Assembly: GCA_001464125.1 (NCBI GenBank)
Contig: LNEP01000011.1
Span: forward strand, 62,001-126,000
Length of the DNA: 64,000 nt
Source: Betaproteobacteria bacterium Ga0077540
GTDB taxonomy: Bacteria > Pseudomonadota > Gammaproteobacteria > Burkholderiales > Methylophilaceae
Reading direction: 5' to 3'
Shown: piece after piece, positions 1,044 to 14,248 of the stretch
Numbering within the stretch: position 1 is the stretch's first letter
Layout: each line of letters opens with the position of its first letter
Made by a program: the position numbers and the translations under genes
The notes under the pieces: model-generated
Told to the model about the DNA's origin: nothing
Databases searched by the model: none
Seen by the model: the letters and a program-made list of their open reading frames with translations, nothing else

Positions 1044-1052
1044 GTAGTTATG
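1023..1052 (+). promoter_or_regulatory. Inverted-repeat operator overlapping promoter and start codon
   Basis: ATAACTA occurs at 1024-1030 and again at 1032-1038, and its exact reverse complement TAGTTAT lies at 1045-1051. The inner pair forms a 7-6-7 palindrome; the outer pair extends to 8 bases (1023-1030 with 1045-1052). AT-rich dyads of this size are typical ArsR/SmtB-family operators. The site covers the probable -10 region and the ATG, so a bound dimer would block transcription. Autoregulation is inferred. Confidence 0.55.
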
Positions 1053-1355
1053 AAAACAATTCAATCCATACCAATTGAGTGGCAAGCTATCTCAGCCCTG
1101 TTCGTTGCATTAGGTGATGAGCAGCGACAGCGAATTCTGTTAGCATTCGATAAAGATGAACACTTAAATATTCTGCAAATTGTTGAACATTCCAAATTAA
1201 GCAGAACCGCAGTGACGCATCATCTAAAAGTACTACACAAAAGTGGGGCATTAAAAAGCGAAAAAATTGGCAAAGAGGTGTTCTTTTGGGTTAACAAAGA
1301 GCACATGATTGAAGCCATACATAATGTATTAAATTACATACAAAAAGAGATTTAA
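1050..1355 (+). CDS. ArsR-family winged-helix transcriptional regulator
   Basis: A 101-residue protein with a helix-turn-helix at about residues 39-62, including the recognition helix SRTAVTHHLKVL, and a wing at about 66-82 ending EVFFWV. This is the compact ArsR/SmtB architecture. It contains no cysteine at all, so the classic thiol metal site (ELCVCDL type) is absent. No clear alpha-5 His/Asp metal site is visible either. It may therefore sense a non-metal signal, perhaps a lipid-related one given its neighbours. Its stop codon overlaps an in-frame ATG of the acyltransferase gene that follows. An inverted repeat over its start suggests it represses itself and the downstream lipid genes. Confidence 0.85.
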   Translation: MKTIQSIPIEWQAISALFVALGDEQRQRILLAFDKDEHLNILQIVEHSKLSRTAVTHHLKVLHKSGALKSEKIGKEVFFWVNKEHMIEAIHNVLNYIQKEI

Positions 1356-1366
1356 TGGGGGTAAGT

Positions 1367-3499
1367 ATGCTGGCAAGTCTATTACGTAACGTTTGTAAGG
1401 TAATCTTTCGTGTCAAAGTGCATGGTTTGGAGCACGTTCCTCAAGAAAACCGATTACTGATAATCGCGAATCATGAGTCATTTTTAGATGGTTTATTGCT
1501 AGGGCTTTTTCTACCTAAACGCGCTACTTTTGTAGTCCACACCGGTGTGCTTAAAAATCGTATCTTTCGTCAGTTTTTAAGACTCACCCCCTATCTGGCC
1601 GTCGATCCCACTAGCCCTTTAGCCATGAAGCAAGTCATCCGTCGCTTAGATTTGGGTGAAAATGTGGTCATTTTCCCAGAAGGTCGCATCACGCTCACTG
1701 GCAGTTTAATGAAGGTTTATGATGGCCCAGGTTTTGTCGCCGCTAAGACCGGTGCGCGCATTTTGCCTGTCAGAGTCGAGGGTGCGGCGCAGTCTTATTT
1801 TGGGCGTTTGTCCGATGCACATCCTAGAAAAATACTGCCACGCGTCACATTGACTGTGCTACCTAGCACAGAAATTTCTATAGAAGACCCTACCAATCAC
1901 CCGCCTCTCACCGCACGGCAAAGACGACGTATTGCGGGTGAAGGCATGCGTGGCGTGATGCAGAAGATGCTGTTTCAGGCACAAAAAAGCCGCACATTTT
2001 TTGAGGCGTTTTTGGACACGATCGATAAGTTTGGTAGCCGTACCAAGATTATTGAGGACATGAATGGCGTAGAAGAAACCTACCAAATGTTGCTTAAGAA
2101 AAGCTTGGCGTTGGGCCGAATCGCCTGCAAAGTCAGTGCGCCCAGAGAAGCTGTCGGTGTACTGATGCCAAACGTGACCAATACTTTGGCCTTGGTGTTG
2201 GGGATGACCGCATTTAATCGTATCCCAGCCATGTTGAATTACACCGCAGGCACAGCGGGAATGCAAAATGCCTGTATTGCTGCAAATGTTAAAACCATCA
2301 TCACCTCACGTAAATTTATTGAGGCCGCTAGTTTGGAAGAGGTGGTTTCAAAATTCACAGATTTAAATGTGGTGTATTTGGAAGATTTACGCGCACAGTT
2401 TGGCGTTCGTGATCGTGCATGGTTAATGGGGTATGCACTGCACTATCCAAGAGCGGCCATAGAAGAAACACGGCCAGATGATATTGCGGTCATTCTGTTT
2501 ACATCGGGCTCAGAGGGCAAACCAAAAGGTGTAGTGCACTCACATAAAAGCATCTTAGCCAATATTGCGCAGATTATGGCAATACTTGATTTTAACCCCA
2601 CTGATAAATTTATGATGGTATTGCCGATGTTCCATGCCTTTGGCTTTACAGGGTCACTCTTACCAATATTGGGCGGCATCAAAATCATGGTGTTCCCCTC
2701 ACCTCTGCAATACAAAGTCATCCCCGAAGTCATCTACGATAAAGGTTGTACGGTATTGTTTGCAACCAGCACGTTCTTGGGCAACTATGCCAAATTTGCA
2801 CACCCCTACGATTTTTACAAATTGCGTTTTGTGGTGGCTGGGGCAGAAAAACTGAATGAGGAAGTGCGTAGAACTTACCACGAAAAATTCGGCATTCGTA
2901 TTTTGGAGGGCTATGGCACCACAGAGTGCGCACCTGTCCTATCAGCCAATACCCCTATGGCTAATCGCCACGGCAGTGTGGGGCAATTAATGCCAGGTAT
3001 TGAATACAAGCTTGAGCCAATACCGGGGATTGCAGAGGGCGGTGTGCTGCACGTGAAGGGTGAGAATGTTATGCAGGGTTATTACAAGTTTGATGAGCCT
3101 GCAGTATTAGAACCGCCCGAAGATGGTTGGTATAACACAGGCGATGTGGTGGAAGTGGATGCTGAAGGGTATATTTTTATCAAAGGCCGGGTGAAACGTT
3201 TTGCTAAAGTGGCGGGTGAAATGGTCTCGTTAGAGGTGGTAGAAAAAATCGCACATACCGCCGCACCCGAACATCAGCATGCAGCTTCAACACAAACCGA
3301 CCTGCAGCGTGGTGAGAATATCGTACTGTTTACCACAGACCCTGCTTTAAAGCGGGAAGACCTGCAAATTGTGGCTAAAAATTTGGGCAGTCCGGAGTTG
3401 GCGATCGCTAGAAAAATTGTGCAACTTGATGAAATCCCATTGCTAGGTACAGGTAAAACCGACTATGTCACTTTGAAACAGATGGCGGAAGCAACATAG
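1367..3499 (+). CDS. aas: Bifunctional acyl-ACP synthetase / 2-acyl-glycerophosphoethanolamine acyltransferase
   Basis: Re-acylates lysophospholipids at the inner membrane using an acyl-ACP made by its own ligase domain. The N-terminal PlsC-type acyltransferase domain has NHESFLDG (H36-x4-D41) and FPEGR at about 103-107. The C-terminal AMP-forming ligase domain has FTSGSEGKPKG near residue 378, then EGYGTTECAP and a YNTGD block. At 710 residues it is close to E. coli Aas (719), which it resembles closely from its first residues. That is why the ATG at 1367, preceded by a purine-rich GGGGGTAAG, is preferred over the ATG at 1355 that overlaps the arsR stop. lplT, the transporter for its substrate, follows 179 bases later, as in enterobacteria. 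Confidence 0.93.
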   Translation: MLASLLRNVCKVIFRVKVHGLEHVPQENRLLIIANHESFLDGLLLGLFLPKRATFVVHTGVLKNRIFRQFLRLTPYLAVDPTSPLAMKQVIRRLDLGENVVIFPEGRITLTGSLMKVYDGPGFVAAKTGARILPVRVEGAAQSYFGRLSDAHPRKILPRVTLTVLPSTEISIEDPTNHPPLTARQRRRIAGEGMRGVMQKMLFQAQKSRTFFEAFLDTIDKFGSRTKIIEDMNGVEETYQMLLKKSLALGRIACKVSAPREAVGVLMPNVTNTLALVLGMTAFNRIPAMLNYTAGTAGMQNACIAANVKTIITSRKFIEAASLEEVVSKFTDLNVVYLEDLRAQFGVRDRAWLMGYALHYPRAAIEETRPDDIAVILFTSGSEGKPKGVVHSHKSILANIAQIMAILDFNPTDKFMMVLPMFHAFGFTGSLLPILGGIKIMVFPSPLQYKVIPEVIYDKGCTVLFATSTFLGNYAKFAHPYDFYKLRFVVAGAEKLNEEVRRTYHEKFGIRILEGYGTTECAPVLSANTPMANRHGSVGQLMPGIEYKLEPIPGIAEGGVLHVKGENVMQGYYKFDEPAVLEPPEDGWYNTGDVVEVDAEGYIFIKGRVKRFAKVAGEMVSLEVVEKIAHTAAPEHQHAASTQTDLQRGENIVLFTTDPALKREDLQIVAKNLGSPELAIARKIVQLDEIPLLGTGKTDYVTLKQMAEAT

Positions 3500-3678
3500 A
3501 GAATGATGTAAATGGTCGATTGGGGTGGTGCATAGTGAGGGCATGTTAGACCTGAACATGGTGCAAACATTAAACTTACTGAGCTATGTTGAATATTTCT
3601 GATTACGATGATGATATGAAGATAAAGTCTTTCTTTCCTAAGCGCTAAAAGCCCAGGACTAATTTATAAAGTGCAACC

Positions 3679-4878
3679 ATGACAACTATAATAAATAACA
3701 GCTCAGACAAGTTATTCTCGCGCGGTATGATCGCCGTGTTAATTGCGCAATTTATGTCTGCTTTTGCAGACAATGCATTATTGTTTGCAGCAATCGCGTT
3801 GCTAAAGGCTGGATCAGCACCAAACTGGCAGGTACCGCTATTGCAGGAGTTCTTTGTAGTAGCGTTTATTATTCTGGCACCTTTTGTCGGACCAATAGCT
3901 GATGGTTTTCCTAAAGGGCGGGTGATGCTAACAGCCAACTTGCTCAAGTTATCGGGTGCTACGGTAATGATGCTAGGACTAAACCCACTGTTAGCTTACG
4001 GCTTGGTGGGTATTGGTGCCGCAGCTTATTCCCCGGCCAAATATGGCATTTTGAGTGAGCTGGTGAGCGCAAATCAATTAGTGAAAGCCAATGGTCTGAT
4101 TGAAGGATCAACGATTGTTGCTATTTTGTTAGGTGCGGTTTTGGGTGGAAAGATCGCAGATATGTCCGTAATGTTCGCATTAACAGCCGTTTGTGCCTGC
4201 TATCTATTGGCAGCAGGCGTCAATACCTTGATACCTCGTTTACCTGTTGCAAGACCAGACACCAAGTTATCACTCTTAAAGTTAATAAAAGAATTTTTAG
4301 AGGCGCTTAGAGTGCTCTCGTTCAATAAAGACGCTCGTTTTTCATTAATAGGCTCTAGTATTTTTTGGGGGACAGGATCAACTTTGCGCTTACTATTGGT
4401 TGCATGGGTACCTGTGGCGCTAGGTATTAACGACTTGAGTATGCCTGCAAACTTGAGCGGCGCCGTTGCAGTAGGTATTGCGATTGGAGCTGCGTTTGCG
4501 GCCAATTTCGTTCGACTTGAACATGTGAATCGTGTGCTTCCAGCAGGTTTGCTGATTGGGGTGCTCATCATTATGTTTGCGCAAACAACTCAACTATCCA
4601 TCGCCATTGGTTTACTCATCCTAATAGGTTCAGCAGGTGGGTTTTATGTGGTGCCACTCAACGCTTTGTTGCAAGAACGTGGACATGAAACGGTTGGTGC
4701 AGGCAATGCGGTGGCAGTACAAAACTTTTTTGAAAACTTTTGTATGATGACATTGATAGGTATCTATATTGTTCTGCAAAAAAATGATGTACCTGTCATC
4801 ACCACAACCTGGGTATTTGGCGGAATTATTTTAATGGCGATAAGCCTACTGGCGCTTAAAAGGTTACGGAAACTATAA
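3679..4878 (+). CDS. lplT: Lysophospholipid transporter LplT (MFS)
   Basis: A 399-residue protein with about 12 hydrophobic segments that flips lyso-phospholipids across the inner membrane to Aas for re-acylation. Recognisable LplT blocks include FADNALLFAAIALLKA near the start, AAYSPAKYGILSEL in the first half, TLRLLLVAWVPVALGI in the middle and GGFYVVPLNALLQERG followed by GAGNAVAVQNFFEN near the end. It lies 179 bases after aas. No strong ribosome site is visible before the ATG, but the N-terminal extent matches the family. A fatty-acid hydroxylase follows after 22 bases, suggesting co-transcription. Confidence 0.93.
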   Translation: MTTIINNSSDKLFSRGMIAVLIAQFMSAFADNALLFAAIALLKAGSAPNWQVPLLQEFFVVAFIILAPFVGPIADGFPKGRVMLTANLLKLSGATVMMLGLNPLLAYGLVGIGAAAYSPAKYGILSELVSANQLVKANGLIEGSTIVAILLGAVLGGKIADMSVMFALTAVCACYLLAAGVNTLIPRLPVARPDTKLSLLKLIKEFLEALRVLSFNKDARFSLIGSSIFWGTGSTLRLLLVAWVPVALGINDLSMPANLSGAVAVGIAIGAAFAANFVRLEHVNRVLPAGLLIGVLIIMFAQTTQLSIAIGLLILIGSAGGFYVVPLNALLQERGHETVGAGNAVAVQNFFENFCMMTLIGIYIVLQKNDVPVITTTWVFGGIILMAISLLALKRLRKL

Positions 4879-4900
4879 AGACATTAAGCATATCCGTTCA

Positions 4901-5647
4901 ATGCATACTTTAATCTCCCTCACCGCTAGCGATAATCCTTTACCGCTGATGTTTTGTGCGACCGTCTTTTTTCTGAGCATTTATTGCACTTTTGCAGGCT
5001 TGGTGTATTTGCTGACAAAACAGCTTGATCGGACCATTGAAAAGCGAGAAGCCACTGGCAAGCAGATGGCGACAGAGCTTACTAACTCTATGCGTACGAT
5101 AGGATTGTTTGGCATTGGCATGATAGTGCCATGGTTGTTGATACAAAATGGATTGGCCAGCATTGATGTGAGCCACACTAACGTGCAAATTGTATTGGAG
5201 TGCTTAGCACTAATAGTGTGGAACGATATACATTTTTATTTCGTACACCGTTTGCTACACACACAGCACAAATGGTTTAACTTTAAGACTTTACATGTCA
5301 CGCATCACAAATCCGTGTCTGCCACCCCGTTTGCCGCTTATAGTATGAGCGTATCAGAGGCCATCTTACTAGGAAGTGTGATGCCCATAGCCATGCTAGT
5401 GTGGGATTTTTCGGCTATTTCGCTACTCTTCTTACCCATCTGGTCCATCTGCATTAACGCATTAGCACACTCCAACTGTGATCTTTTTCCTCATGCCAGT
5501 CAGCGCTCTTGTTTAGCGCTGGTGAAGCATCACCAACATCATCACTCGCATTATCACGGTAATTACAGCTTCTTTTTTTGGCAGCTGGACGCCTTCTTTG
5601 GATCTTTACACAACTCAAAAAAACAGGATACCCATGACACCATTTAG
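4901..5647 (+). CDS. Membrane fatty-acid hydroxylase / sterol desaturase family protein
   Basis: A 248-residue integral membrane protein with the histidine clusters of the non-heme diiron hydroxylase/desaturase superfamily: H111, H116 and H120 in HFYFVHRLLH; HVTHH at 132-136; and a dense cluster HHQHHHSHYHG at about 210-220. Hydrophobic segments lie near residues 15-40, 68-85, 98-110 and 150-190. These enzymes insert hydroxyl groups or double bonds into acyl chains, sterols or carotenoids. There is no sterol or carotenoid gene in the window, and the neighbours are lipid genes, so an acyl chain is the likelier substrate. Its last 14 bases overlap the ketosynthase gene, which suggests translational coupling. 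Confidence 0.85.
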   Translation: MHTLISLTASDNPLPLMFCATVFFLSIYCTFAGLVYLLTKQLDRTIEKREATGKQMATELTNSMRTIGLFGIGMIVPWLLIQNGLASIDVSHTNVQIVLECLALIVWNDIHFYFVHRLLHTQHKWFNFKTLHVTHHKSVSATPFAAYSMSVSEAILLGSVMPIAMLVWDFSAISLLFLPIWSICINALAHSNCDLFPHASQRSCLALVKHHQHHHSHYHGNYSFFFWQLDAFFGSLHNSKKQDTHDTI

Positions 5648-7508
5648 CCATGTATACATCACCGACACTGCCAGCTTTATGCCAGGAAAAGCGGTAAACA
5701 ATGAAGGAATGGATCAGTATATTGGGTCAATCAATCGCATGTCAGATCGCATCAAAATGCGCATTTTGGCTGAAAATGGCATTCAGCATAGGCATTATGC
5801 TATTGATGAAAAGGGTCAATCGTTACATTCGGTAACTTCTATGGGTGCTAATGTGGTAGCGGCTTTAAGTAAAAATAATATGCCTCAATTCTTGGCTGCC
5901 GCAACTACTGGAAGTGATTGTGCGGCACCGGGCCTTGCCAACTTAATTCAAGGGGAATTGGCGCTTCCACCGCTAGAAACACTATCGGTATCAGGCATAT
6001 GTGCAGCATCTATAGGTGCGCTTAATGCGGCAGCTTCTGCAATTCAATCAGGCGCTGCAGATACCGCAATCACGGTAGCCAGTGAGTTTCCTTCTAGGCT
6101 GTTTAAAGCCTCCCGCTTTGAAAACCGGGAGGCGGATATCGATTTTGATGCACATTTTTTACGCTGGATGCTGTCAGACGGTGCTGGCGGCGTGATGCTG
6201 AGGAATCAAGCAGCGGCGCAGGGAATATCATTCAGGCTAAAGTGGATTCATCAGCGATCATTTTCCGGGGATATGCCTACCTGTATGCAAGTGGGTCAAT
6301 CCATTGGTAACACGCTACCTGGCTACTTGGACTACCCGACTTTGGCAGAAGCAGAAAAGGCTGGCGCTTTCGATTTACGCCAAAATATCAGAACACTGCC
6401 TAACTTATTTGATATGGGGCTACATGAGTATGCTGGCTTGGTGAAAGATGGGTATGTTAACCCATCAGATATCGACTGGTTTTTGTGTCATTACTCATCC
6501 GAGCGCTTTAAGCCGATGATGGCAGATTTAATGCAAGAAGCGGGTATTGCTATTCCAACTGAAAAATGGTTTTCTAATCTATCAAGCAAAGGCAATACTG
6601 GCTCCGCATCAATTTTTATTATGCTGGATGAGTTTTTCAAAACTAAAAAAGCTTCATTAAAAGTAGGGCAACAAATATTTGGTTTTGTACCAGAGTCAGG
6701 ACGCTTTAGTGTTGCCTATTTTTTACTGGAAGTGGTGGATTGCAACACAGTTACAAGTGCTACGCAGCAACCTGCATCTCATGCTGTAGTAGACTTTGCG
6801 ACCGATTTAGCACCAGCCCCTATGTCGGCAGAAGGTCAAACTGGCGTGGTTGCGGATACGCTCAAAGGCTTGATGGCGGTATGGCATGATTACCGCTCAG
6901 AAGTATTCCGTACAGATATTGCTTGCGCGATCATGCAAGGAAACATTCAGCTTGCTGATTATTTGAGCTGGATGGAGTGTTGGATTCCACAGGTGCGCGA
7001 AGGCAGTCTTTGGATGCGACGTGCAGTATCCAGCATGAGCCCACAATACCAACAACTAGCGCAGCTTGTACAAACGCATGCGGGTGAAGAGCAGCTTGAT
7101 TGGCAAGTGTTATACCAAGACTATGTACAGGCTGGGGGTAAGCTTGACGCAAGCCATTTAAGACGCAACCCCGGTGGTGAGGCGTTAAATGCTTTTATGC
7201 ACAGTTATGCAGCGCGTAAAGACCCGATAGGCTTACTTGGTGGCATCTACATTATTGAGGGCACTGGACAGCGGATTGTGCCCACTTTACTGCCCAAATT
7301 GAAGCAGCATTTAAGAGTGTCCTCATCCATTTTAAAATTTATTGAGTACCATGGTGAAAATGACCAAGCACATATGATGCGGTGGTTAGAAGCAGTTAAA
7401 CTGGTGGTGAAAATTGACAGCAGTGCTGCAAAAGAGATTGTGAGCGTGGCACAAACTGTCGCTACCTTATATTTGCAGCAATGGAAATTCGTACCCGTTA
7501 GCGACTAG
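5634..7508 (+). CDS. Ketoacyl synthase III fused to a heme-oxygenase-like diiron domain
   Basis: A 624-residue two-domain protein, roughly twice the usual KAS III length. Residues 1-375 are a thiolase-fold KAS III with an intact triad: Cys123 in SVSGICAASIGAL, His286 in FLCHYSS and Asn321 in KGNTGSAS. The surrounding sequence, including VASEFPSRLFKASRF, resembles the StlD/DarB ketosynthases of stilbene and dialkylresorcinol pathways; this is recall, not a search. Residues about 400-624 are helical and look like heme-oxygenase-like diiron oxidases, with Glu542 and the pattern H573-x3-D577-x2-H580. The expected first-helix E-x6-H pair is not obvious. The ATG at 5634 is chosen over an upstream in-frame TTG (5598) because AGGA sits six bases before it. 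The product is unknown. Confidence 0.8.
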   Translation: MTPFSHVYITDTASFMPGKAVNNEGMDQYIGSINRMSDRIKMRILAENGIQHRHYAIDEKGQSLHSVTSMGANVVAALSKNNMPQFLAAATTGSDCAAPGLANLIQGELALPPLETLSVSGICAASIGALNAAASAIQSGAADTAITVASEFPSRLFKASRFENREADIDFDAHFLRWMLSDGAGGVMLRNQAAAQGISFRLKWIHQRSFSGDMPTCMQVGQSIGNTLPGYLDYPTLAEAEKAGAFDLRQNIRTLPNLFDMGLHEYAGLVKDGYVNPSDIDWFLCHYSSERFKPMMADLMQEAGIAIPTEKWFSNLSSKGNTGSASIFIMLDEFFKTKKASLKVGQQIFGFVPESGRFSVAYFLLEVVDCNTVTSATQQPASHAVVDFATDLAPAPMSAEGQTGVVADTLKGLMAVWHDYRSEVFRTDIACAIMQGNIQLADYLSWMECWIPQVREGSLWMRRAVSSMSPQYQQLAQLVQTHAGEEQLDWQVLYQDYVQAGGKLDASHLRRNPGGEALNAFMHSYAARKDPIGLLGGIYIIEGTGQRIVPTLLPKLKQHLRVSSSILKFIEYHGENDQAHMMRWLEAVKLVVKIDSSAAKEIVSVAQTVATLYLQQWKFVPVSD

Positions 7509-7513
7509 TTCAA

Positions 7514-9004
7514 ATGATAAATAAAATAGCTTATTTAAGTGCTGCTGTGCTGTTCTGGGTATGTTCTTTTGCATTAGCAATGGATCAATCTAGTGATTTT
7601 ATTGATACACAAATTGCAGCGCATCCGGATAAAACGGGTGTCTTCGTTTTAGATAAAGGGGAAGACGCTCTGATAGCGCGAGCATGGTTGGCTGACTATG
7701 CAAAACAAACCATAGAAGTGCAATACTTTATTTGGAGTGATGACAATATTGGGACACTTGCCTCAGAAGCCCTGCTGCGTGCGGCTGATAGAGGAGTGAT
7801 GGTGCGTGTAATTGTCGATGACCTATTGATCAATGCACCTGACCAAACGTTATTGGCGCTGGCTTTACACCCCAACATTAACATCAAAATTTATAATCCG
7901 CAGCATTCAGTAGGCGTGCCATTTCACAAAAGACTCATCAATATCATCACTGATTTTCGTGGAGTTAATCAGCGCATGCACGATAAAACTTTTATTGTGG
8001 ATGGCAAAATTGCTATTACTGGTGGGCGTAACATGGCTACTGAATACTTTGATTACAATCATTCCTATAATTTTAGAGACAGAGATGTATTACTTTTAGG
8101 GAAAGACGTTGCAGGCATTAAATCTAGTTTTGAGCGTTTTTGGAAAAGTCCTTTAAGTGTCAGCGTAGAACATTTATATGACGGCATAGGGATTTTTAAA
8201 AAAAATGTACAGGTAGAAGATAGTCAAGTTAAAGAAATTTACCAGTCGCTCCACGATTATGCACAATCTAGCAGTAATTTCTCTGCATATTTGCGTGGTG
8301 TGATTAGTAACATTCATAATGCCTTTAATGCTATATCCCAGCAAATTATCTGGACAAATGTCTCGGTGATAAGTGACTTACCCGGTAAAAATAAGGCTTC
8401 TGGGCTGGCGGGTGGAGGTCAATCCACATCAGCACTTGTTCAATTGGTTAACGCCTCGCAGAAGCAAATCACCATTCAATCGCCATATTTAGTCATGTCA
8501 GACCAGGCTGTTTCATTGTTCCAATCTGCCATTAATCGCGGCGTTAAAGTGCGAATTAATACCAACTCATTAGCGGCCACCGATAACATTCAGGCATTTA
8601 GCGGTTATCGTAATCAACGTAATCAGCTACTTAAAATGGGCGTAAGCATTTATGAATACAAACCCAACCCAATCGTCAAAAAACATCTAATAGCCGCTTC
8701 AATATTGGCACATAAGCGCTCACCTAAATTTGCAATTCACGCTAAAACAATGGTGATTGATTCGGAAACTGTCTTTATTGGCACATTCAATTTCGATCCT
8801 AGATCTGAAAATTTGAATACAGAAATAGGTGTTGTAATACACAACACCAACTTGGCTAAATCAGTAGAAAAGGCAATCAAAACAGATATGCAGCCCGATA
8901 ACAGCTGGAACGCCGCAACGGATAACCCTGACCGGTATGTCAGTTTCACTAAGCGCTTGAAAGTGTGCTTATTACAAGCCTTACCGATTAAAGCATTGTT
9001 GTAG
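7514..9004 (+). CDS. Secreted phospholipase D-family protein (cardiolipin-synthase-like)
   Basis: A 496-residue protein with two complete HKD motifs, H156-x-K158-x4-D163 (MHDKTFIVDG) and H409-x-K411-x4-D416 (IHAKTMVID), the phospholipase D superfamily signature. The second is followed by FIGTFNFDPRSENLNTE, typical of the cardiolipin-synthase/PLD branch. A signal peptide of about 22 residues (cleavage after ALA) replaces the transmembrane helices of classical cardiolipin synthases, so action on phospholipid headgroups in the periplasm is likely. It starts five bases after the ketosynthase-diiron gene stops, so they probably form one transcript. Whether it hydrolyses or transfers headgroups cannot be told. 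Confidence 0.85.
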   Translation: MINKIAYLSAAVLFWVCSFALAMDQSSDFIDTQIAAHPDKTGVFVLDKGEDALIARAWLADYAKQTIEVQYFIWSDDNIGTLASEALLRAADRGVMVRVIVDDLLINAPDQTLLALALHPNINIKIYNPQHSVGVPFHKRLINIITDFRGVNQRMHDKTFIVDGKIAITGGRNMATEYFDYNHSYNFRDRDVLLLGKDVAGIKSSFERFWKSPLSVSVEHLYDGIGIFKKNVQVEDSQVKEIYQSLHDYAQSSSNFSAYLRGVISNIHNAFNAISQQIIWTNVSVISDLPGKNKASGLAGGGQSTSALVQLVNASQKQITIQSPYLVMSDQAVSLFQSAINRGVKVRINTNSLAATDNIQAFSGYRNQRNQLLKMGVSIYEYKPNPIVKKHLIAASILAHKRSPKFAIHAKTMVIDSETVFIGTFNFDPRSENLNTEIGVVIHNTNLAKSVEKAIKTDMQPDNSWNAATDNPDRYVSFTKRLKVCLLQALPIKALL

Positions 9005-9028
9005 CTAACTTTGGAGAGCGAGAGTAGC

Positions 9029-9952
9029 GTGGATAATAGACGTCAAAAAAAAGTAGCTTTACCCCGATCTGCACCCAATTTAGAGGCTGCTCATAATCCA
9101 GATGATCCAGACCCTTGGCAAAGTCTGTGGTTGGATCAATCAACACCTATCAATCCAGGTGTAAAACAGGCCTGGCTCCGCGATTCCAATACTTGGTCTC
9201 GCCAATTTTTATTGCCGGTAGTCAGACCGCTGGCCAGGCTCAGCATTGTCTTACTGCAAGTCATTAAAATTATTATCCCTAACCGATTTTGCTCATCACG
9301 TTTACTACATAAGTTATTGGCTTGGGCTTTGTCGATTTTTGCCACTCCGGAAGCCAATTGGTTAATTCTGCGGCATTTCTGGATTGGTTCTGAAAATCTG
9401 GCTTTTTTGAATGCCAATATTAAAGGCGCTGGTGTCGCTATGCATCCGCTGCGACCATACGATTTACCAGATTTAAAAGACAATTTATTTATACAGCATG
9501 ACTTAAATTTATTTAACTTTATCACTCGGCTCAACTTGTCGTTGCGGGCGAACAATGTTGGGGATGTTCAAGCCAATCAATCATTAGATTTCTCCATGAT
9601 TTCAGAGGATGGCAACTTCCCAATCGCACCTCAAAATGATGGCTGGTTAAATGTATTAGATTTGCAAACATGTATCGATATTTTCACCCCTATTTACCAG
9701 CTGTTTTTGACAGATAAAGATTTTTGGCGCTCTGTGCACTCATTGCAATTTGATGAGACGATAGGCATTTATGCGGCCAAAGTGTTGAATAAGCCTGAGG
9801 GCTTAATATTGGTGAATAACAAACATCCGATGGTCGTTCCTGCGACATGGTCAGCTGGTTATCGCTTGGTACTGCATGGACTGTCAGCTGAAATGCTGCA
9901 TGCGCTGTTGGTTCAAGCTAAACAGCAGTCACTACAAAAGGGTGCTGGCTGA
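9029..9952 (+). CDS. Protein of unknown family at the end of the lipid cluster
   Basis: About 307 residues, family not recognised. The N terminus is charged and proline-rich with PDDPDPWQSLWLDQ. Hydrophobic stretches lie near residues 65-85 (LLPVVRPLARLSIVLLQVIKI) and 100-110, and the C-terminal half is soluble-looking. WLILRHFWIGSENLAFLN and a HPLRPYDLPDLKD segment stand out as possible conserved cores. There is no signal peptide, so it may sit at the cytoplasmic face of the membrane. GTG at 9029 is preferred because GGAGAGCGAGAG precedes it; a TTG at 9011 in the same frame overlaps that ribosome site. It starts 24 bases after the PLD gene, which ties it to the same transcript. Confidence 0.6.
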   Translation: MDNRRQKKVALPRSAPNLEAAHNPDDPDPWQSLWLDQSTPINPGVKQAWLRDSNTWSRQFLLPVVRPLARLSIVLLQVIKIIIPNRFCSSRLLHKLLAWALSIFATPEANWLILRHFWIGSENLAFLNANIKGAGVAMHPLRPYDLPDLKDNLFIQHDLNLFNFITRLNLSLRANNVGDVQANQSLDFSMISEDGNFPIAPQNDGWLNVLDLQTCIDIFTPIYQLFLTDKDFWRSVHSLQFDETIGIYAAKVLNKPEGLILVNNKHPMVVPATWSAGYRLVLHGLSAEMLHALLVQAKQQSLQKGAG

Positions 9953-10010
9953 GTATGTTAAGCGATATAATCAGCGTTTTTAGCACTCGCTGCGTCTTAC
10001 ATTCAAACTT

Positions 10011-12002
10011 ATGCATTTTCTAAATATTTTCAGCGTATTCAAACGTACAGTTTGGCGCTTAGCGCTTAAGGCAGGCCCATTTGCGCCTTTAATCTCCATG
10101 TTGTTATTGGGCTTGGTGATTTTGTCATTGTCACGACTGGGTTTGGTGTTGTGGAAATTTGACCGTGTACATGCGACTGGTGAGTTATTGGCCGTCATGT
10201 ATCAAGGCGTTCGCGTAGATATCATCGAGCTCGGTTTGATTGCGCTGATTCCGCTATTGCTCGCACCCATATTGGCCATTAAACGCCTTTTTAACATTTG
10301 GAAGTGGCTCACCTATAGTTGGGTGTTGATAGCAATCGTGTTGCTCGTATTTTTAGAGGCCGCTACGCCTGGTTTCATTATGGAATACGATGTAAGACCT
10401 AACCGTATTTTTGTGGAGTATCTAAAGTATCCACATGAAGTAATGGGTATGTTATGGACTGGCTTCAAAGTGCATATCTTTGCAGGTGTGCTATTTACTG
10501 TGCTGGCATTTTTAGGGATGCGCTACTGGATGCAACCATGGTGTAACGCCCAATCTACTTGGACTAACCAACGTTTATGGTTGGTGTGGCCGCTAATCTT
10601 TGTGCTCACGCTATTAGGTATACGTTCAACCTTAGGCCATCGACCAGCCAATCCCGCATTATTTGCAATCACCCAAGATAGCATGGTCAATAGCCTGATT
10701 TTGAATTCTGGATATTCTGTTTTCTACGCCATTTATAGCTTGCAACATGAGGCAAAATCCAGCGAAATCTACGGCAAAATGGACAAAGCGGAAGTGTTTA
10801 AAATCACTGGCGCTAAAGATACCGAACTGCCTACTTTAACCACACTCGTGCCATCAGCCAAACGCGATAAACCACTTAATCTGGTCATTATTTTGCAAGA
10901 AAGCTTGGGTGCTGGCTTTGTGGAATCGTTGGGTGGCAAACCCGTTACCCCAAATATTGAGCGTTTAAAAGACGAAGGTATTTGGTTTGAGCAGTTATAC
11001 GCCACTGGTACCCGCTCTGTACGTGGTATTGAAGCGGTCGTCACTGGCTTTCAGCCAACACCTGCGGATAGCACGGTGAAGCTCTCTTTGAGTCAGAAAA
11101 ACTTCTTTAGCTTGGCCAGTTTGTTAGAAAAACAAGGCTATATCACCGAGTTTATTTATGGCGGTGAATCGCACTTTGATAACATGCGTAGCTTTTTTAT
11201 GGGCAACGGTTTTCAACAAATTGTGGATCAAAAAGACTATAAAAATCCGGTATTTGTTGGTAGCTGGGGTGCCTCTGATGAAGATTTGTTGAATAAAACA
11301 CATGAGCAATTGCTGGCGCACTATGCCAGCGGAAAACCATTTTTCACGCTGGCATTCAGTTCATCTAACCATGCACCGTTTGAGTTTCCAGACGGGCGTA
11401 TTGAGCTGTACGAGCAACCCAAAGCCACAGAAAATAATGCGGTCAAATATGCAGATTATGCCGTGGGTGAGTTTATTAAAAAGGCCAAAGCCAGCCCCTA
11501 TTGGAAAGACACCATATTCTTGATTGTGGCAGACCATGATATTCGTGTACGTGGCGAAACCTTGGTACCGATTGAGCATTTTCATATCCCGGGATTAATT
11601 CTGGGCGCGGATGTCAGCCCTAAACGCATTAAGGCCATAACCAGTCAGATTGATTTGCCTGTGACCGTCTTATCACTGATGGGTGTGAATGCCCAGCACC
11701 CGATGACAGGAACGGACATGACTAAGATCCCAGAGGATTATTTGGGGCGCGCCATGATGCAATACAACTACAATTTTGGATGGATGGAGCAAACCCAGCC
11801 CATCACAGACAAAATGATTCCCAACCAAGTGGTGGTGCTACGTGAGGGCAAAGCACCTGCTTTTGGGGTGTATGATACGCAAAACAAGCATCTCAATGAG
11901 ACTCCACCCCCAGAGAACGCAACCGCATTAGAGCAACGTGCGCTGGCTAATTCACTATTGCCTTCCCTGTTGTATACCGAACAACGCTACCGGTTGCCCT
12001 AA
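10011..12002 (+). CDS. LtaS-like phosphoglycerol/phosphoethanolamine transferase (alkaline-phosphatase fold)
   Basis: A 663-residue inner-membrane protein with about five transmembrane helices in residues 20-220, followed by a periplasmic sulfatase-fold domain from about residue 288. Metal-site candidates are Glu297 in LQESLG and Asp508-His509 in IVADHD; the likely nucleophile is Thr334 in YATGTRSVRG, matching the catalytic Thr of LtaS. Gram-negative members modify periplasmic glycans or lipopolysaccharide with phosphoglycerol or phosphoethanolamine. The stop codon TAA shares its last base with the ATG of the kinase-like gene that follows, so the two products are probably made together and act on the same surface polymer. 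The substrate is not determined. Confidence 0.85.
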   Translation: MHFLNIFSVFKRTVWRLALKAGPFAPLISMLLLGLVILSLSRLGLVLWKFDRVHATGELLAVMYQGVRVDIIELGLIALIPLLLAPILAIKRLFNIWKWLTYSWVLIAIVLLVFLEAATPGFIMEYDVRPNRIFVEYLKYPHEVMGMLWTGFKVHIFAGVLFTVLAFLGMRYWMQPWCNAQSTWTNQRLWLVWPLIFVLTLLGIRSTLGHRPANPALFAITQDSMVNSLILNSGYSVFYAIYSLQHEAKSSEIYGKMDKAEVFKITGAKDTELPTLTTLVPSAKRDKPLNLVIILQESLGAGFVESLGGKPVTPNIERLKDEGIWFEQLYATGTRSVRGIEAVVTGFQPTPADSTVKLSLSQKNFFSLASLLEKQGYITEFIYGGESHFDNMRSFFMGNGFQQIVDQKDYKNPVFVGSWGASDEDLLNKTHEQLLAHYASGKPFFTLAFSSSNHAPFEFPDGRIELYEQPKATENNAVKYADYAVGEFIKKAKASPYWKDTIFLIVADHDIRVRGETLVPIEHFHIPGLILGADVSPKRIKAITSQIDLPVTVLSLMGVNAQHPMTGTDMTKIPEDYLGRAMMQYNYNFGWMEQTQPITDKMIPNQVVVLREGKAPAFGVYDTQNKHLNETPPPENATALEQRALANSLLPSLLYTEQRYRLP

Positions 12003-14248
12003 TGACCAGCGCTTCCTATCAGCCTTCCATGCTGACCAAGCAGGTTGTCCGTGATGGCCTGAGCTATTTTCTGCGCGGTGGGCTGTGGTTGCGCCAAGCG
12101 CATTTGCCTGTCAATGACCATGTGATTGCAGATGACTTTATTGGCGTATGCGTGGCGACTCAAGAAGATCCGGCATTAGACGCTTATGTGATTGCGCAAT
12201 TGCGCATGCTGGGCATCAAGCGTGTACGTTTAGATTTTACTTACGGTGATTTAGAGAGCGCTAACGCACGCTTTTTATCAGCGTTGATTGCTGCAGGCTA
12301 CCGTGTCAATCTGCATTTGGTACAACCTTTCCAGGCTGCCAAGCAAATGTTGCTGGCAGAGGAGCAAGACATCTGGCGGCAGTTTTTGCATGATGTGCTT
12401 GACCGTTTTGGCAGTCAACTTACCCATATCGAAATAGGCTCGACCATTAACCGCAAACGTTGGAGCGGCTATAGTTTTGATGGTTTTCTTGCGACATGGG
12501 ATATTGCTTACAAGCTCATCAAAGCACGCAATATCACTATCGCCGGGCCCAATGTTCAAGATTTTGAGCCGTTTTATAACGTTAGTTTGCTAAATCAATT
12601 AAAGGCTCGTCAGCAGCTGCCCGATATCTGCAGTAACAATTTATTTTGTGAGCGCGTGCCTGAGCCGGAAAGTAATGACCATCGTGTATTTAAATATCAG
12701 TGGACTACTTGGTTTGATTACAACTTAATCAAAAAAGCGCGATTATTACAGAAAATCAATCTTGATTTTGGCGTTTCTGCACTGATTTCACCGGTAGCAT
12801 TTTGGTCTGTTTTTCGTATACAGCGCCGCTACCCAGATGCACTAGAAAAACAGGCCGATTACGCCGTACGTTATTTCCTATTGTTAGCTGCTTCGGGCGC
12901 ATTACAGCAAACCAACTGGGGCGCCTTAATTTGTCAGCGCGAAGGCTTGATTAGCGACGGTTTGACCGAGCATGATTACCCAGCGCTAGAACGCGTTACG
13001 CATTACGCACATGCAGATGGTCAAGTTACCAATTACACGCATCGTCCCAGCTTTGCAGCAGTGAAAACCTGTGCCGCGCAGATTCAGGGTGCGCGTTATG
13101 TGGGTGCTTTGGCTAATGGTGATGGCTTAGAACATCATCATTTTGAAAAAGATGGTCACACTATCCATGCTATTTGGACACAAAATGGCAAAGTAGCCTT
13201 TTTAGATGCTGTCTACTCTCAAGCTGTTCTAGCACAAGCTGTCATGGTGAGTCGGGATGGAATAGTGCTACCCAACACACATGTATTTGTGACTGAATCA
13301 CCTATGTATTTGATTTGGCATCACTCTACCGAAATAGCGGCTGAGCCAACTTTGGCCAAGGATTTGTTGATTTATGCACATCAACCAGACCTAAAATATT
13401 TCCGCTTTGATGAAGGTGATTGGCAAGGTTTAGTGCTCGCTAAAGATGCAGAAGACGCGGCTGTATTGATGCGTGAATTGCATCCAGAAGGCTTGCAGGC
13501 ACCCCACAAAGCAGGAGCTTTGCGCCATGCGCGTAATGCAATCTGGGCAGTGCCGGATCCAAGAAATCCGGAGCGGCAATTGACGATTAAACAGCCAGTC
13601 AAAATGTATCCACACAAAGCCTTTTTAGATCGTTTTAAACCCAGCAAGGCCAAGCGTAGCTGGAATGGGGCGATGGAGTTGATGCGTCGTGGTATTGGCA
13701 CAGCTATGCCGGTGGCTTACTTTGAAAAAGTAGGCGACGCTAGCTTAAAGCAAAACTTTTATGTGTGTGAATACGTGCCGTCAGAGGCCAACATCGGGCA
13801 AATATTTGCTGCTTTTGCGCAGGGAGAAACCCATTTTAATAACTTCCCGGCAGAAGACGTCTATTTCCAATTTGCGCAATTCTGTCATGATATGCACGGC
13901 CGCTTGATTTACTTCAGGGATTTTTCCGGCGGCAATATTCTGGTCAATCTGGACGCAGATAAACAGCTTACGTTCTCATTAATTGATACCGCACGTTTGC
14001 GTACATTTGCCATGACGCCTTTTCCCGAGCAATATCGTCTTGCCGATATGACACGTGCTTGCCACAAACTACATTGGGCAGGGCGTGAGCGCTTGATGCA
14101 AATTTATTTTGGTATGTTGGGCCGTCAGTTTACTTGGCGTCATCGTCTAGCATTCCATCTCTATGATTTCAAAGTGCGTTTAAAGAAAACCATAGGCCGT
14201 AAAGGCTGGAAACGCATGCTACGAAAGATAAAAGGATTAAAGGCCTGA
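12002..14248 (+). CDS. Two-domain protein: glycosidase-like N-terminal half, lipopolysaccharide-kinase-like C-terminal half
   Basis: A 748-residue soluble protein. Residues about 35-330 look like a (beta/alpha)8 glycoside hydrolase (alternating strands, FDGFLATWDIAYKLIKA, LPDICSNNLFC), but where family members carry an acid/base GNEPN motif this reads IEIGSTINRKRW, so hydrolytic activity is doubtful. Residues about 530-748 resemble lipopolysaccharide/Kdo-type kinases: YFRDFSGGNILV near residue 639 stands for the catalytic loop and FSLIDTARLR for the metal-binding Asp. No signal peptide. The gene is translationally coupled (TAATG) to the LtaS-like transferase, which suggests phosphorylation of a surface sugar that is then decorated further. 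Function is inferred from fold only. Confidence 0.7.
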   Translation: MTSASYQPSMLTKQVVRDGLSYFLRGGLWLRQAHLPVNDHVIADDFIGVCVATQEDPALDAYVIAQLRMLGIKRVRLDFTYGDLESANARFLSALIAAGYRVNLHLVQPFQAAKQMLLAEEQDIWRQFLHDVLDRFGSQLTHIEIGSTINRKRWSGYSFDGFLATWDIAYKLIKARNITIAGPNVQDFEPFYNVSLLNQLKARQQLPDICSNNLFCERVPEPESNDHRVFKYQWTTWFDYNLIKKARLLQKINLDFGVSALISPVAFWSVFRIQRRYPDALEKQADYAVRYFLLLAASGALQQTNWGALICQREGLISDGLTEHDYPALERVTHYAHADGQVTNYTHRPSFAAVKTCAAQIQGARYVGALANGDGLEHHHFEKDGHTIHAIWTQNGKVAFLDAVYSQAVLAQAVMVSRDGIVLPNTHVFVTESPMYLIWHHSTEIAAEPTLAKDLLIYAHQPDLKYFRFDEGDWQGLVLAKDAEDAAVLMRELHPEGLQAPHKAGALRHARNAIWAVPDPRNPERQLTIKQPVKMYPHKAFLDRFKPSKAKRSWNGAMELMRRGIGTAMPVAYFEKVGDASLKQNFYVCEYVPSEANIGQIFAAFAQGETHFNNFPAEDVYFQFAQFCHDMHGRLIYFRDFSGGNILVNLDADKQLTFSLIDTARLRTFAMTPFPEQYRLADMTRACHKLHWAGRERLMQIYFGMLGRQFTWRHRLAFHLYDFKVRLKKTIGRKGWKRMLRKIKGLKA

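What the first reader, a model, noticed from the sequence alone, without database searches (positions are those of the whole stretch)
1050..9952. Candidate uncharacterised lipid-making locus: arsR-aas-lplT-hydroxylase-KASIII/diiron-PLD-unknown
Seven co-oriented genes with overlaps or gaps of at most 179 bases combine lysophospholipid repair, acyl hydroxylation, a DarB/StlD-like condensing enzyme fused to a diiron domain, a secreted phospholipase D and a protein of no recognised family, next to an outer-membrane duct and under an ArsR-type regulator. Seen: order, motifs, overlaps. Known: each family acts on acyl chains or lipids. Inferred: together they make, modify and place an unusual membrane or resorcinol-like lipid. 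No acyl carrier protein or DarA-type cyclase is in view, so the product is open.
Basis: partly seen in the sequence, partly recalled or inferred. Interest (0 to 1): 0.78.

Follow-up and report, generated by a model that had tools for sequence, protein, structure and literature searches.

The report
Unknown fatty-acid ring-making gene trio
Inside a seven-gene run lies a conserved trio of enzyme domains (a chain-joining synthase, an oxygen-using iron-type domain and a protein of unknown fold) that stays together in distant Proteobacteria and probably makes an undescribed ring-containing lipid.

The parts
1050..1355 (+). arsR-type winged-helix regulator without any cysteine; backbone gene, also present in 3 of 5 relatives lacking the cassette
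1355..3499 (+). aas: acyl-ACP synthetase / 2-acyl-glycerophospholipid acyltransferase; backbone gene
   Evidence: NF005959 919.6 bits over cut-off 886; 87 of 187 family genomes
3494..10043 (+). inserted cassette: stretch with no blastn match in relative L099, whose homology stops at 3493 and resumes at 10044
   Evidence: GC 43.3% for 3500-10000 against 46.1% for the window
3679..4878 (+). lplT, lysophospholipid transporter type; stands where relatives have a different LplT-like MFS protein
   Evidence: NF008397 497.5 bits over cut-off 297
4901..5647 (+). membrane fatty-acid hydroxylase superfamily protein (FAH), accessory tailoring enzyme
   Evidence: PF04116; 26 of 30 betaproteobacterial-type loci
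5634..6770 (+). ketosynthase domain, sister to StlD/DarB; C124, H287, N322, with Cys286 before the catalytic His (numbers count from base 5631, one codon before the ATG; the domain border at 6770 is approximate)
6771..7508 (+). haem-oxygenase-like diiron (HDO) domain in the same frame; D490 where canonical HDOs have His, plus E487, E543, H574, D578, H581
   Evidence: PF14518
7514..9004 (+). secreted-looking phospholipase D-like / cardiolipin-synthase-like protein, two HKD motifs, accessory (signal peptide by eye)
   Evidence: PF13091, PF00614; below the cardiolipin synthase cut-offs
9011..9952 (+). DUF6999 protein, third member of the conserved trio; predicted all-helical with no confident known fold
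   Evidence: PF22523 387 bits

Best explanation
The working unit is a three-part module: DarB/StlD-like ketosynthase (KS), HDO domain and DUF6999, carried here in an acquired cassette. The KS takes two acyl thioesters from fatty acid synthesis and joins and cyclises them as DarB does (a beta-ketoacyl unit plus an unsaturated acyl unit giving a 2,5-dialkyl-cyclohexane-1,3-dione or its carboxylate). The HDO domain, using O2, oxidises that ring intermediate, most simply by an UndA-like oxidative decarboxylation/dehydrogenation that gives a resorcinol-type ring, and so takes the place of the aromatase DarA. DUF6999 does a further conserved step of unknown chemistry. FAH, and in relatives a desaturase or an SDR, tailor the product; LplT, Aas and PLD may supply or place chains. 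Shown: families, active-site residues, conserved linkage, fusion, absence of the DarA-place gene, cassette insertion. Inferred: the reaction order, the ring product and the role of the HDO.
Against: No product or activity is known. The window KS (342 bits), L018 (362) and six more trio KS (322-398) score below NCBI's StlD/DarB cut-off of 450, while four of four DarA-linked KS scanned pass it (568-599). Cys replaces the Pro before the catalytic His in 38 of 38. So the KS reaction may differ from DarB's. Glu109, a candidate base by analogy with PpyS E105, is Ala in 4 of 38 trio KS (all outside the beta type), though it is Leu in 2 of 7 DarA-linked KS. The name DarA for the comparison gene rests on gene order (as in the table of PMC3949708), a DarH match nearby in the two loci scanned for it and recall; it has no Pfam or NCBIfam match, and its plasmid relatives are 'hypothetical protein'. 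The HDO lacks the usual His ligand, so it may not do UndA-like chemistry. DUF6999 rather than the HDO could be the DarA substitute. Several stretches held are short (L019 5.5 kb, L022 4.0 kb, L093 5.8 kb), so absence there is local.
Confidence: 0.4

Rival explanations
1. The KS makes a non-aromatic head-to-head product (OleA- or PpyS-like beta-keto acid, pyrone or long-chain ketone) and the HDO decarboxylates, desaturates or hydroxylates it; no resorcinol is formed.
Against: StlD stands well above OleA in fold and is the best PDB sequence match; the StlD/DarB model is the best NCBIfam match for the window KS and for all seven other trio KS scanned.
Confidence: 0.3
2. One reading: the seven genes are one lipid-making and lipid-placing operon under ArsR control, with Aas, LplT and PLD as working parts.
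For: Co-orientation and overlaps; Methylobacillus L013 repeats nearly the whole set; a fused LplT-like/Aas protein follows the trio in L079, of another class.
Against: Backbone without cassette in 5 of 5 relatives fetched for this; aas in 87 of 187 against KS/HDO in 6 of 187 genomes. Of 37 trio loci scanned with aas, 31 show none in the stretch held, although some stretches are short and L014 has one about 12 kb upstream of the KS; PLD lies between HDO and DUF6999 in 4 of 37.
Confidence: 0.15
3. The HDO domain is mainly an oxidative-stress or O2/peroxide-handling partner rather than a product-forming oxidase.
For: DtpC of Acinetobacter, with an HDO-like domain, protects against desiccation-linked oxidative stress (PMC13232832, passages); the ligand set here is unusual.
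Against: Fusion to a ketosynthase and a fixed third partner point to a shared substrate.
Confidence: 0.05

Closest known systems
DarA/DarB (StlD) dialkylresorcinol and cyclohexanedione pathway
   Same: KS of the same wider family: StlD is the best match in sequence and fold, with the same Cys-His-Asn triad
   Different: No DarA-like gene in the trio stretches held; HDO and DUF6999 instead; Cys not Pro before the catalytic His; below NCBI's StlD/DarB cut-off
HDO superfamily enzymes such as UndA, SznF, BesC and PolF (PMC13108848, passages)
   Same: PF14518 match over its cut-off, HxxxDxxH helix, conserved Glu before it
   Different: Asp in place of the ExxH His in 17 of 17 rows; an invariant His one turn earlier; fusion to a ketosynthase
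Aas/LplT lysophospholipid repair pair
   Same: Both proteins pass their NCBI equivalog cut-offs
   Different: Here lplT belongs to the cassette and aas to the backbone
OleA head-to-head condensing enzyme

Membership tests
StlD/DarB ketosynthase (NCBIfam NF005293) | score over the curated cut-off of 450 bits | tested here: not met
   341.8 bits for the window KS; 361.9 for L018; 322-398 for six other trio KS. Yardstick: four DarA-linked KS score 568-599
StlD/DarB ketosynthase (NCBIfam NF005293) | Cys-His-Asn triad on a KASIII fold | tested here: met
DarAB(C) dialkylresorcinol gene cluster | DarA-type aromatase beside DarB | tested here: not met
   no match in the stretches of all 38 trio loci; found in 7 of 7 unfused loci fetched; none in the own genome as held. 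The DarA name of the query rests on gene order and recall (no HMM match)
DarAB(C) dialkylresorcinol gene cluster | cyclohexanedione or resorcinol product | not testable with these tools
   needs expression and LC-MS
HDO superfamily | haem-oxygenase-like fold family PF14518 | tested here: met
   32.6 bits against a cut-off of 28.9; profile match to 3dde, E 4e-11. L105's HDO protein alone does not reach PF14518
HDO superfamily | 3H/3C (or 3H/4C) metal ligand set with ExxH on the first core helix | tested here: not met
   Asp at the His position in 17 of 17 rows, a sample of the 38 loci, aligned against the HDO of the same genome, L104, and 3dde; whether invariant His103 takes over is open
DUF6999 (PF22523) | match over the gathering cut-off | tested here: met
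   387 bits against 27
DUF6999 (PF22523) | a known fold | tested here: inconclusive
Aas bifunctional acyltransferase/ligase (NF005959) | equivalog cut-off 886 bits | tested here: met
   919.6 bits
LplT (NF008397) | equivalog cut-off 297 bits | tested here: met
   497.5 bits
ArsR/SmtB metalloregulator (NF033788) | cut-off 55 bits | tested here: not met
   53.7 bits; the protein has no cysteine. PF01022 (arsR HTH) is over its own cut-off
Cardiolipin synthase (TIGR04265) | cut-off 290 bits | tested here: not met
   107.8 bits

The most novel reading that the evidence does not exclude
A new lipid pathway in which a DarB-like ketosynthase hands its ring intermediate within one chain to a haem-oxygenase-like iron domain with a non-canonical, carboxylate-rich ligand set (Asp for His), which aromatises it with O2 instead of a DarA-type aromatase; DUF6999 is a third enzyme of unknown fold and chemistry. 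The trio would be a compact, mobile, widely spread route to an undescribed class of ring lipids.
Probability: 0.33. Interest if true: 0.75.

Novelty: new variant of a known kind. Interest (0 to 1): 0.6.

Why it matters
It gives a clean, testable exchange: a StlD/DarB ketosynthase with a DarA-like partner in one set of loci, a sister ketosynthase with HDO and DUF6999 in the other. If the HDO does the aromatisation it would be a new reaction for that superfamily with an unusual metal site, and it would lead to a first function for DUF6999. The trio is small (about 2.8 kb here without PLD), occurs in named strains (Methylobacillus sp. MM3, Pseudorhodoferax soli DSM 21634, Pseudoalteromonas sp. 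THAF3) and may be present in Caulobacter vibrioides, so it can be tested directly.

Tried and rejected
Considered and set aside. (1) A seven-gene operon: rejected by the empty-site comparison. (2) Mobile-element borders: no direct or inverted repeats of 14 or more bases (seed 11) at 3300-10300 and no tRNA in the window, so the mode of insertion is unknown. (3) Promoter/terminator scan: counts within one standard deviation of shuffles, so nothing is claimed on transcription. (4) A biotin-type role like BioE: the passages seen place that enzyme with ferritin-like oxygenases (PMC12915131), another fold. (5) Sequence relatives of DUF6999 in the PDB: none up to E 10; fold search gave no confident match. 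(6) Metal-site geometry could not be measured: no model coordinates among the script files. (7) The HDO domain's fold inside the 625-residue model was not tested on its own: the KS domain filled the lists; that model has pTM 0.57, so the domain arrangement is not used. (8) Literature: searches in an open-licence library only. 'DUF6999' and 'PF22523' occur in no held paper; no title or abstract listed showed a KS-HDO fusion (capped listings); subscription papers are not covered. (9) A name for the DarA-like query: none from Pfam, NCBIfam or annotated plasmids.

Results against the reading, told again: trio KS below the DarB cut-off; Glu109 is Ala in 4 of 38; L019 (one in-frame stop), L022 (frame change) and L024 (separate genes) are not fused by the script, though the tree carries them in its 'fused' label; L015 counts as fused by the script but its KS is cut by a frameshift; the tree warns of long branches, and the separate-gene KS fall in two places. 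The blast tables keep the best non-overlapping hits at E<=1e-4; one search shows hits over 60 bits. Weak PLD hits (22-32%) in L065-L068 and L072 and a 23% SDR hit in L016 were not counted.

Full report
Observation. The window (G000 contig C11, 62001-126000) starts inside a TolC-type gene that follows an ABC exporter and an HlyD-type gene (those two names are my reading). HMMs give arsR-type HTH, aas and lplT (both over their NCBI equivalog cut-offs), a membrane fatty-acid hydroxylase (FAH), a KASIII domain with a haem-oxygenase-like diiron (HDO) domain in the same frame, a two-HKD phospholipase D and DUF6999. Downstream lie a sulfatase-fold gene (best NCBIfam matches: phosphoglycerol transferase and lipoteichoic acid synthase models, below cut-off) and a gene with a WaaP/Kdo-kinase domain.

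Backbone and cassette. The KS/HDO is found in 6 of 187 genomes of the same family, the window's included; a close aas in 87 of 187, the six included. I fetched the aas region of five of the 81 genomes with aas and no KS/HDO (L098-L102; L103, a sixth stretch, is the upstream part of the L014 trio genome). All five carry aas, an LplT-like MFS gene unlike the window's lplT, the sulfatase and the kinase; three (L099, L100, L101) also arsR; none shows FAH, KS/HDO, PLD or DUF6999 at E<=1e-4. DNA homology of the window to L099 ends at 3493 and resumes at 10044. So lplT-FAH-KS/HDO-PLD-DUF6999 is a cassette standing where the MFS gene stands in these relatives, while arsR and aas are resident. Its GC is 43.3% against 46.1% for the window; 6.5 kb windows range from 43.2 to 49.7%, sd 1.4. 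No repeats or tRNA mark its ends.

The core trio. A scan of genome contigs with the KS/HDO gave 15 loci; an order-level search of 399 genomes gave 17 full-length KS/HDO matches including the window; searches with DUF6999 gave 9 of 398 and 6 of 240 genomes, one shared, and one plasmid. After removing two duplicates (L063 = L025, L064 = L018) there are 38 distinct loci, the window included, and KS, HDO and DUF6999 lie together in this order in all 38, with PLD between HDO and DUF6999 in four. Fifteen of them, the window included, are hits of DUF6999-only searches, so that part is free of the KS/HDO query bias. KS and HDO are in one open frame in 27 of the 30 loci of the betaproteobacterial type (one is labelled Lysobacteraceae, one only Pseudomonadota) and separate genes in the other 8. 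Public annotation of Pseudoalteromonas sp. THAF3 names the three 'beta-ketoacyl-ACP synthase III', 'iron-containing redox enzyme family protein' and 'hypothetical protein'. The control genome Caulobacter vibrioides rings for DUF6999, for the HDO family and for the StlD/DarB model, where the cut-off status is not told per genome; that it holds the trio side by side is inferred.

Accessory genes. At tblastn E<=1e-4 in the stretches held: FAH in 26 of the 30 betaproteobacterial-type loci, absent in L018 and L024, a short C-terminal FAH remnant only in L011 and L012, and none in the 7 other loci scanned (L105 was not scanned for it). A fatty-acid desaturase lies by the KS in 17 of 30; an SDR with 89-100% identity to the query (the query's own locus included) follows in 5 of 30. 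PLD sits between KS/HDO and DUF6999 in 4 (window, L011, L012, L013); L066 has a 32% PLD hit just before FAH. aas is seen in the window, L011, L012, L013 and L015 and, in another class, directly after the trio in L079, there fused to an LplT-like domain; L014 has it about 12 kb upstream of the KS. In L094 and L095 (other class) the trio stands between neighbours that do not recur among these loci.

DarA is replaced. Seven of the eleven unfused KS loci were fetched (L081-L087); all seven have the same gene just before the KS, which I call DarA-like. The name rests on gene order: in Azoarcus darA stands next to darB, with a BtrH-like gene and ABC genes further on (table in PMC3949708, passages), and here a DarH (BtrH-related) match follows the KS in the two loci scanned for it. 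No Pfam or NCBIfam model names it. Two DarA-like queries find nothing in the window, in the 33 rows L011-L025 and L063-L080, or in L093-L097 and L105. The own genome has no match (no positive control in that call). One genome, G564, holds both kinds: trio L066 and DarA-linked L087. In print, DarB is a DAR cyclase and DarA a DAR aromatase (PMC3949708, passages), KS of this class make 2,5-dialkylcyclohexane-1,3-diones from a beta-ketoacyl and an unsaturated acyl thioester (PMC4578411, passages), and the diones are intermediates of the resorcinol pathway (PMC4414361, passages). Hence the proposal that the HDO, or less likely DUF6999, does the oxidation. An oxidative decarboxylation of a ring carboxylate would give the resorcinol oxidation level directly; that step is my inference from UndA chemistry.

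The HDO. Over 17 rows (17 of the 38 loci) H103, E107, D110, E163, H194, D198 and H201 (domain numbering; 483, 487, 490, 543, 574, 578, 581 in the fusion) are invariant. Aligned with another HDO-family protein of the same genome (L104, 110 bits to PF14518) and with PDB 3dde, D110 stands where the ExxH His stands. The review seen describes 3H/3C for most HDOs, 3H/4C for about a quarter, and a mononuclear variant (PMC13108848, passages). A 2H/4C set, or His103 taking over, is possible; without coordinates this stays open.

Verdict. Real and not chance. The unit is the trio, a variant of a known kind (DarB-type condensing pathways) with two parts for which I found no counterpart there.

Noticed in passing
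L104 (own genome C11:169000-174500), about 45 kb beyond the window's end: A second HDO-family protein (PF14518, 110 bits) with a canonical ExxH lies between an AMP-ligase-like gene and an SDR-like gene (the two neighbours named by eye); a possible separate small pathway.
   Followed up: partly
window 10011-14248: A sulfatase-fold gene and a 748-residue protein with a WaaP/Kdo-kinase domain follow the cassette and are kept as a pair in relatives with (L011, L012, L014) and without it (L098-L102).
   Followed up: partly
L011:9908-9982 and L012:9908-9985: A C-terminal remnant of the FAH gene sits just before the KS/HDO gene, which suggests deletion of the hydroxylase.
   Followed up: partly
L080:11441-12007 (-) and L105:5672-6229: An unclassified His-containing, apparently membrane-bound protein of 185-188 aa (64% identical between the two) precedes the KS in both of these trio loci; no Pfam match over a cut-off.
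   Followed up: partly
L079:5697-9098 (-): A fused LplT-like/Aas protein directly follows the trio in a genome of another class, an echo of the aas-lplT link in the window.
   Followed up: partly
L066 and L087 (genome G564): One genome holds both the KS/HDO-DUF6999 trio and a DarA-linked StlD/DarB locus, so the two are not mutually exclusive in a cell.
   Followed up: no
L020, L021, L022: MAG records labelled Bordetella parapertussis carry the trio; the species label may be wrong.
   Followed up: no
L015:8517-10396: The KS is split by a frameshift in this MAG, a sequencing error or a decaying copy.
   Followed up: no
L014:12798-15202: Two unclassified proteins (550 and 246 aa) lie between DUF6999 and the sulfatase gene in this relative; no Pfam or NCBIfam match.
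   Followed up: no
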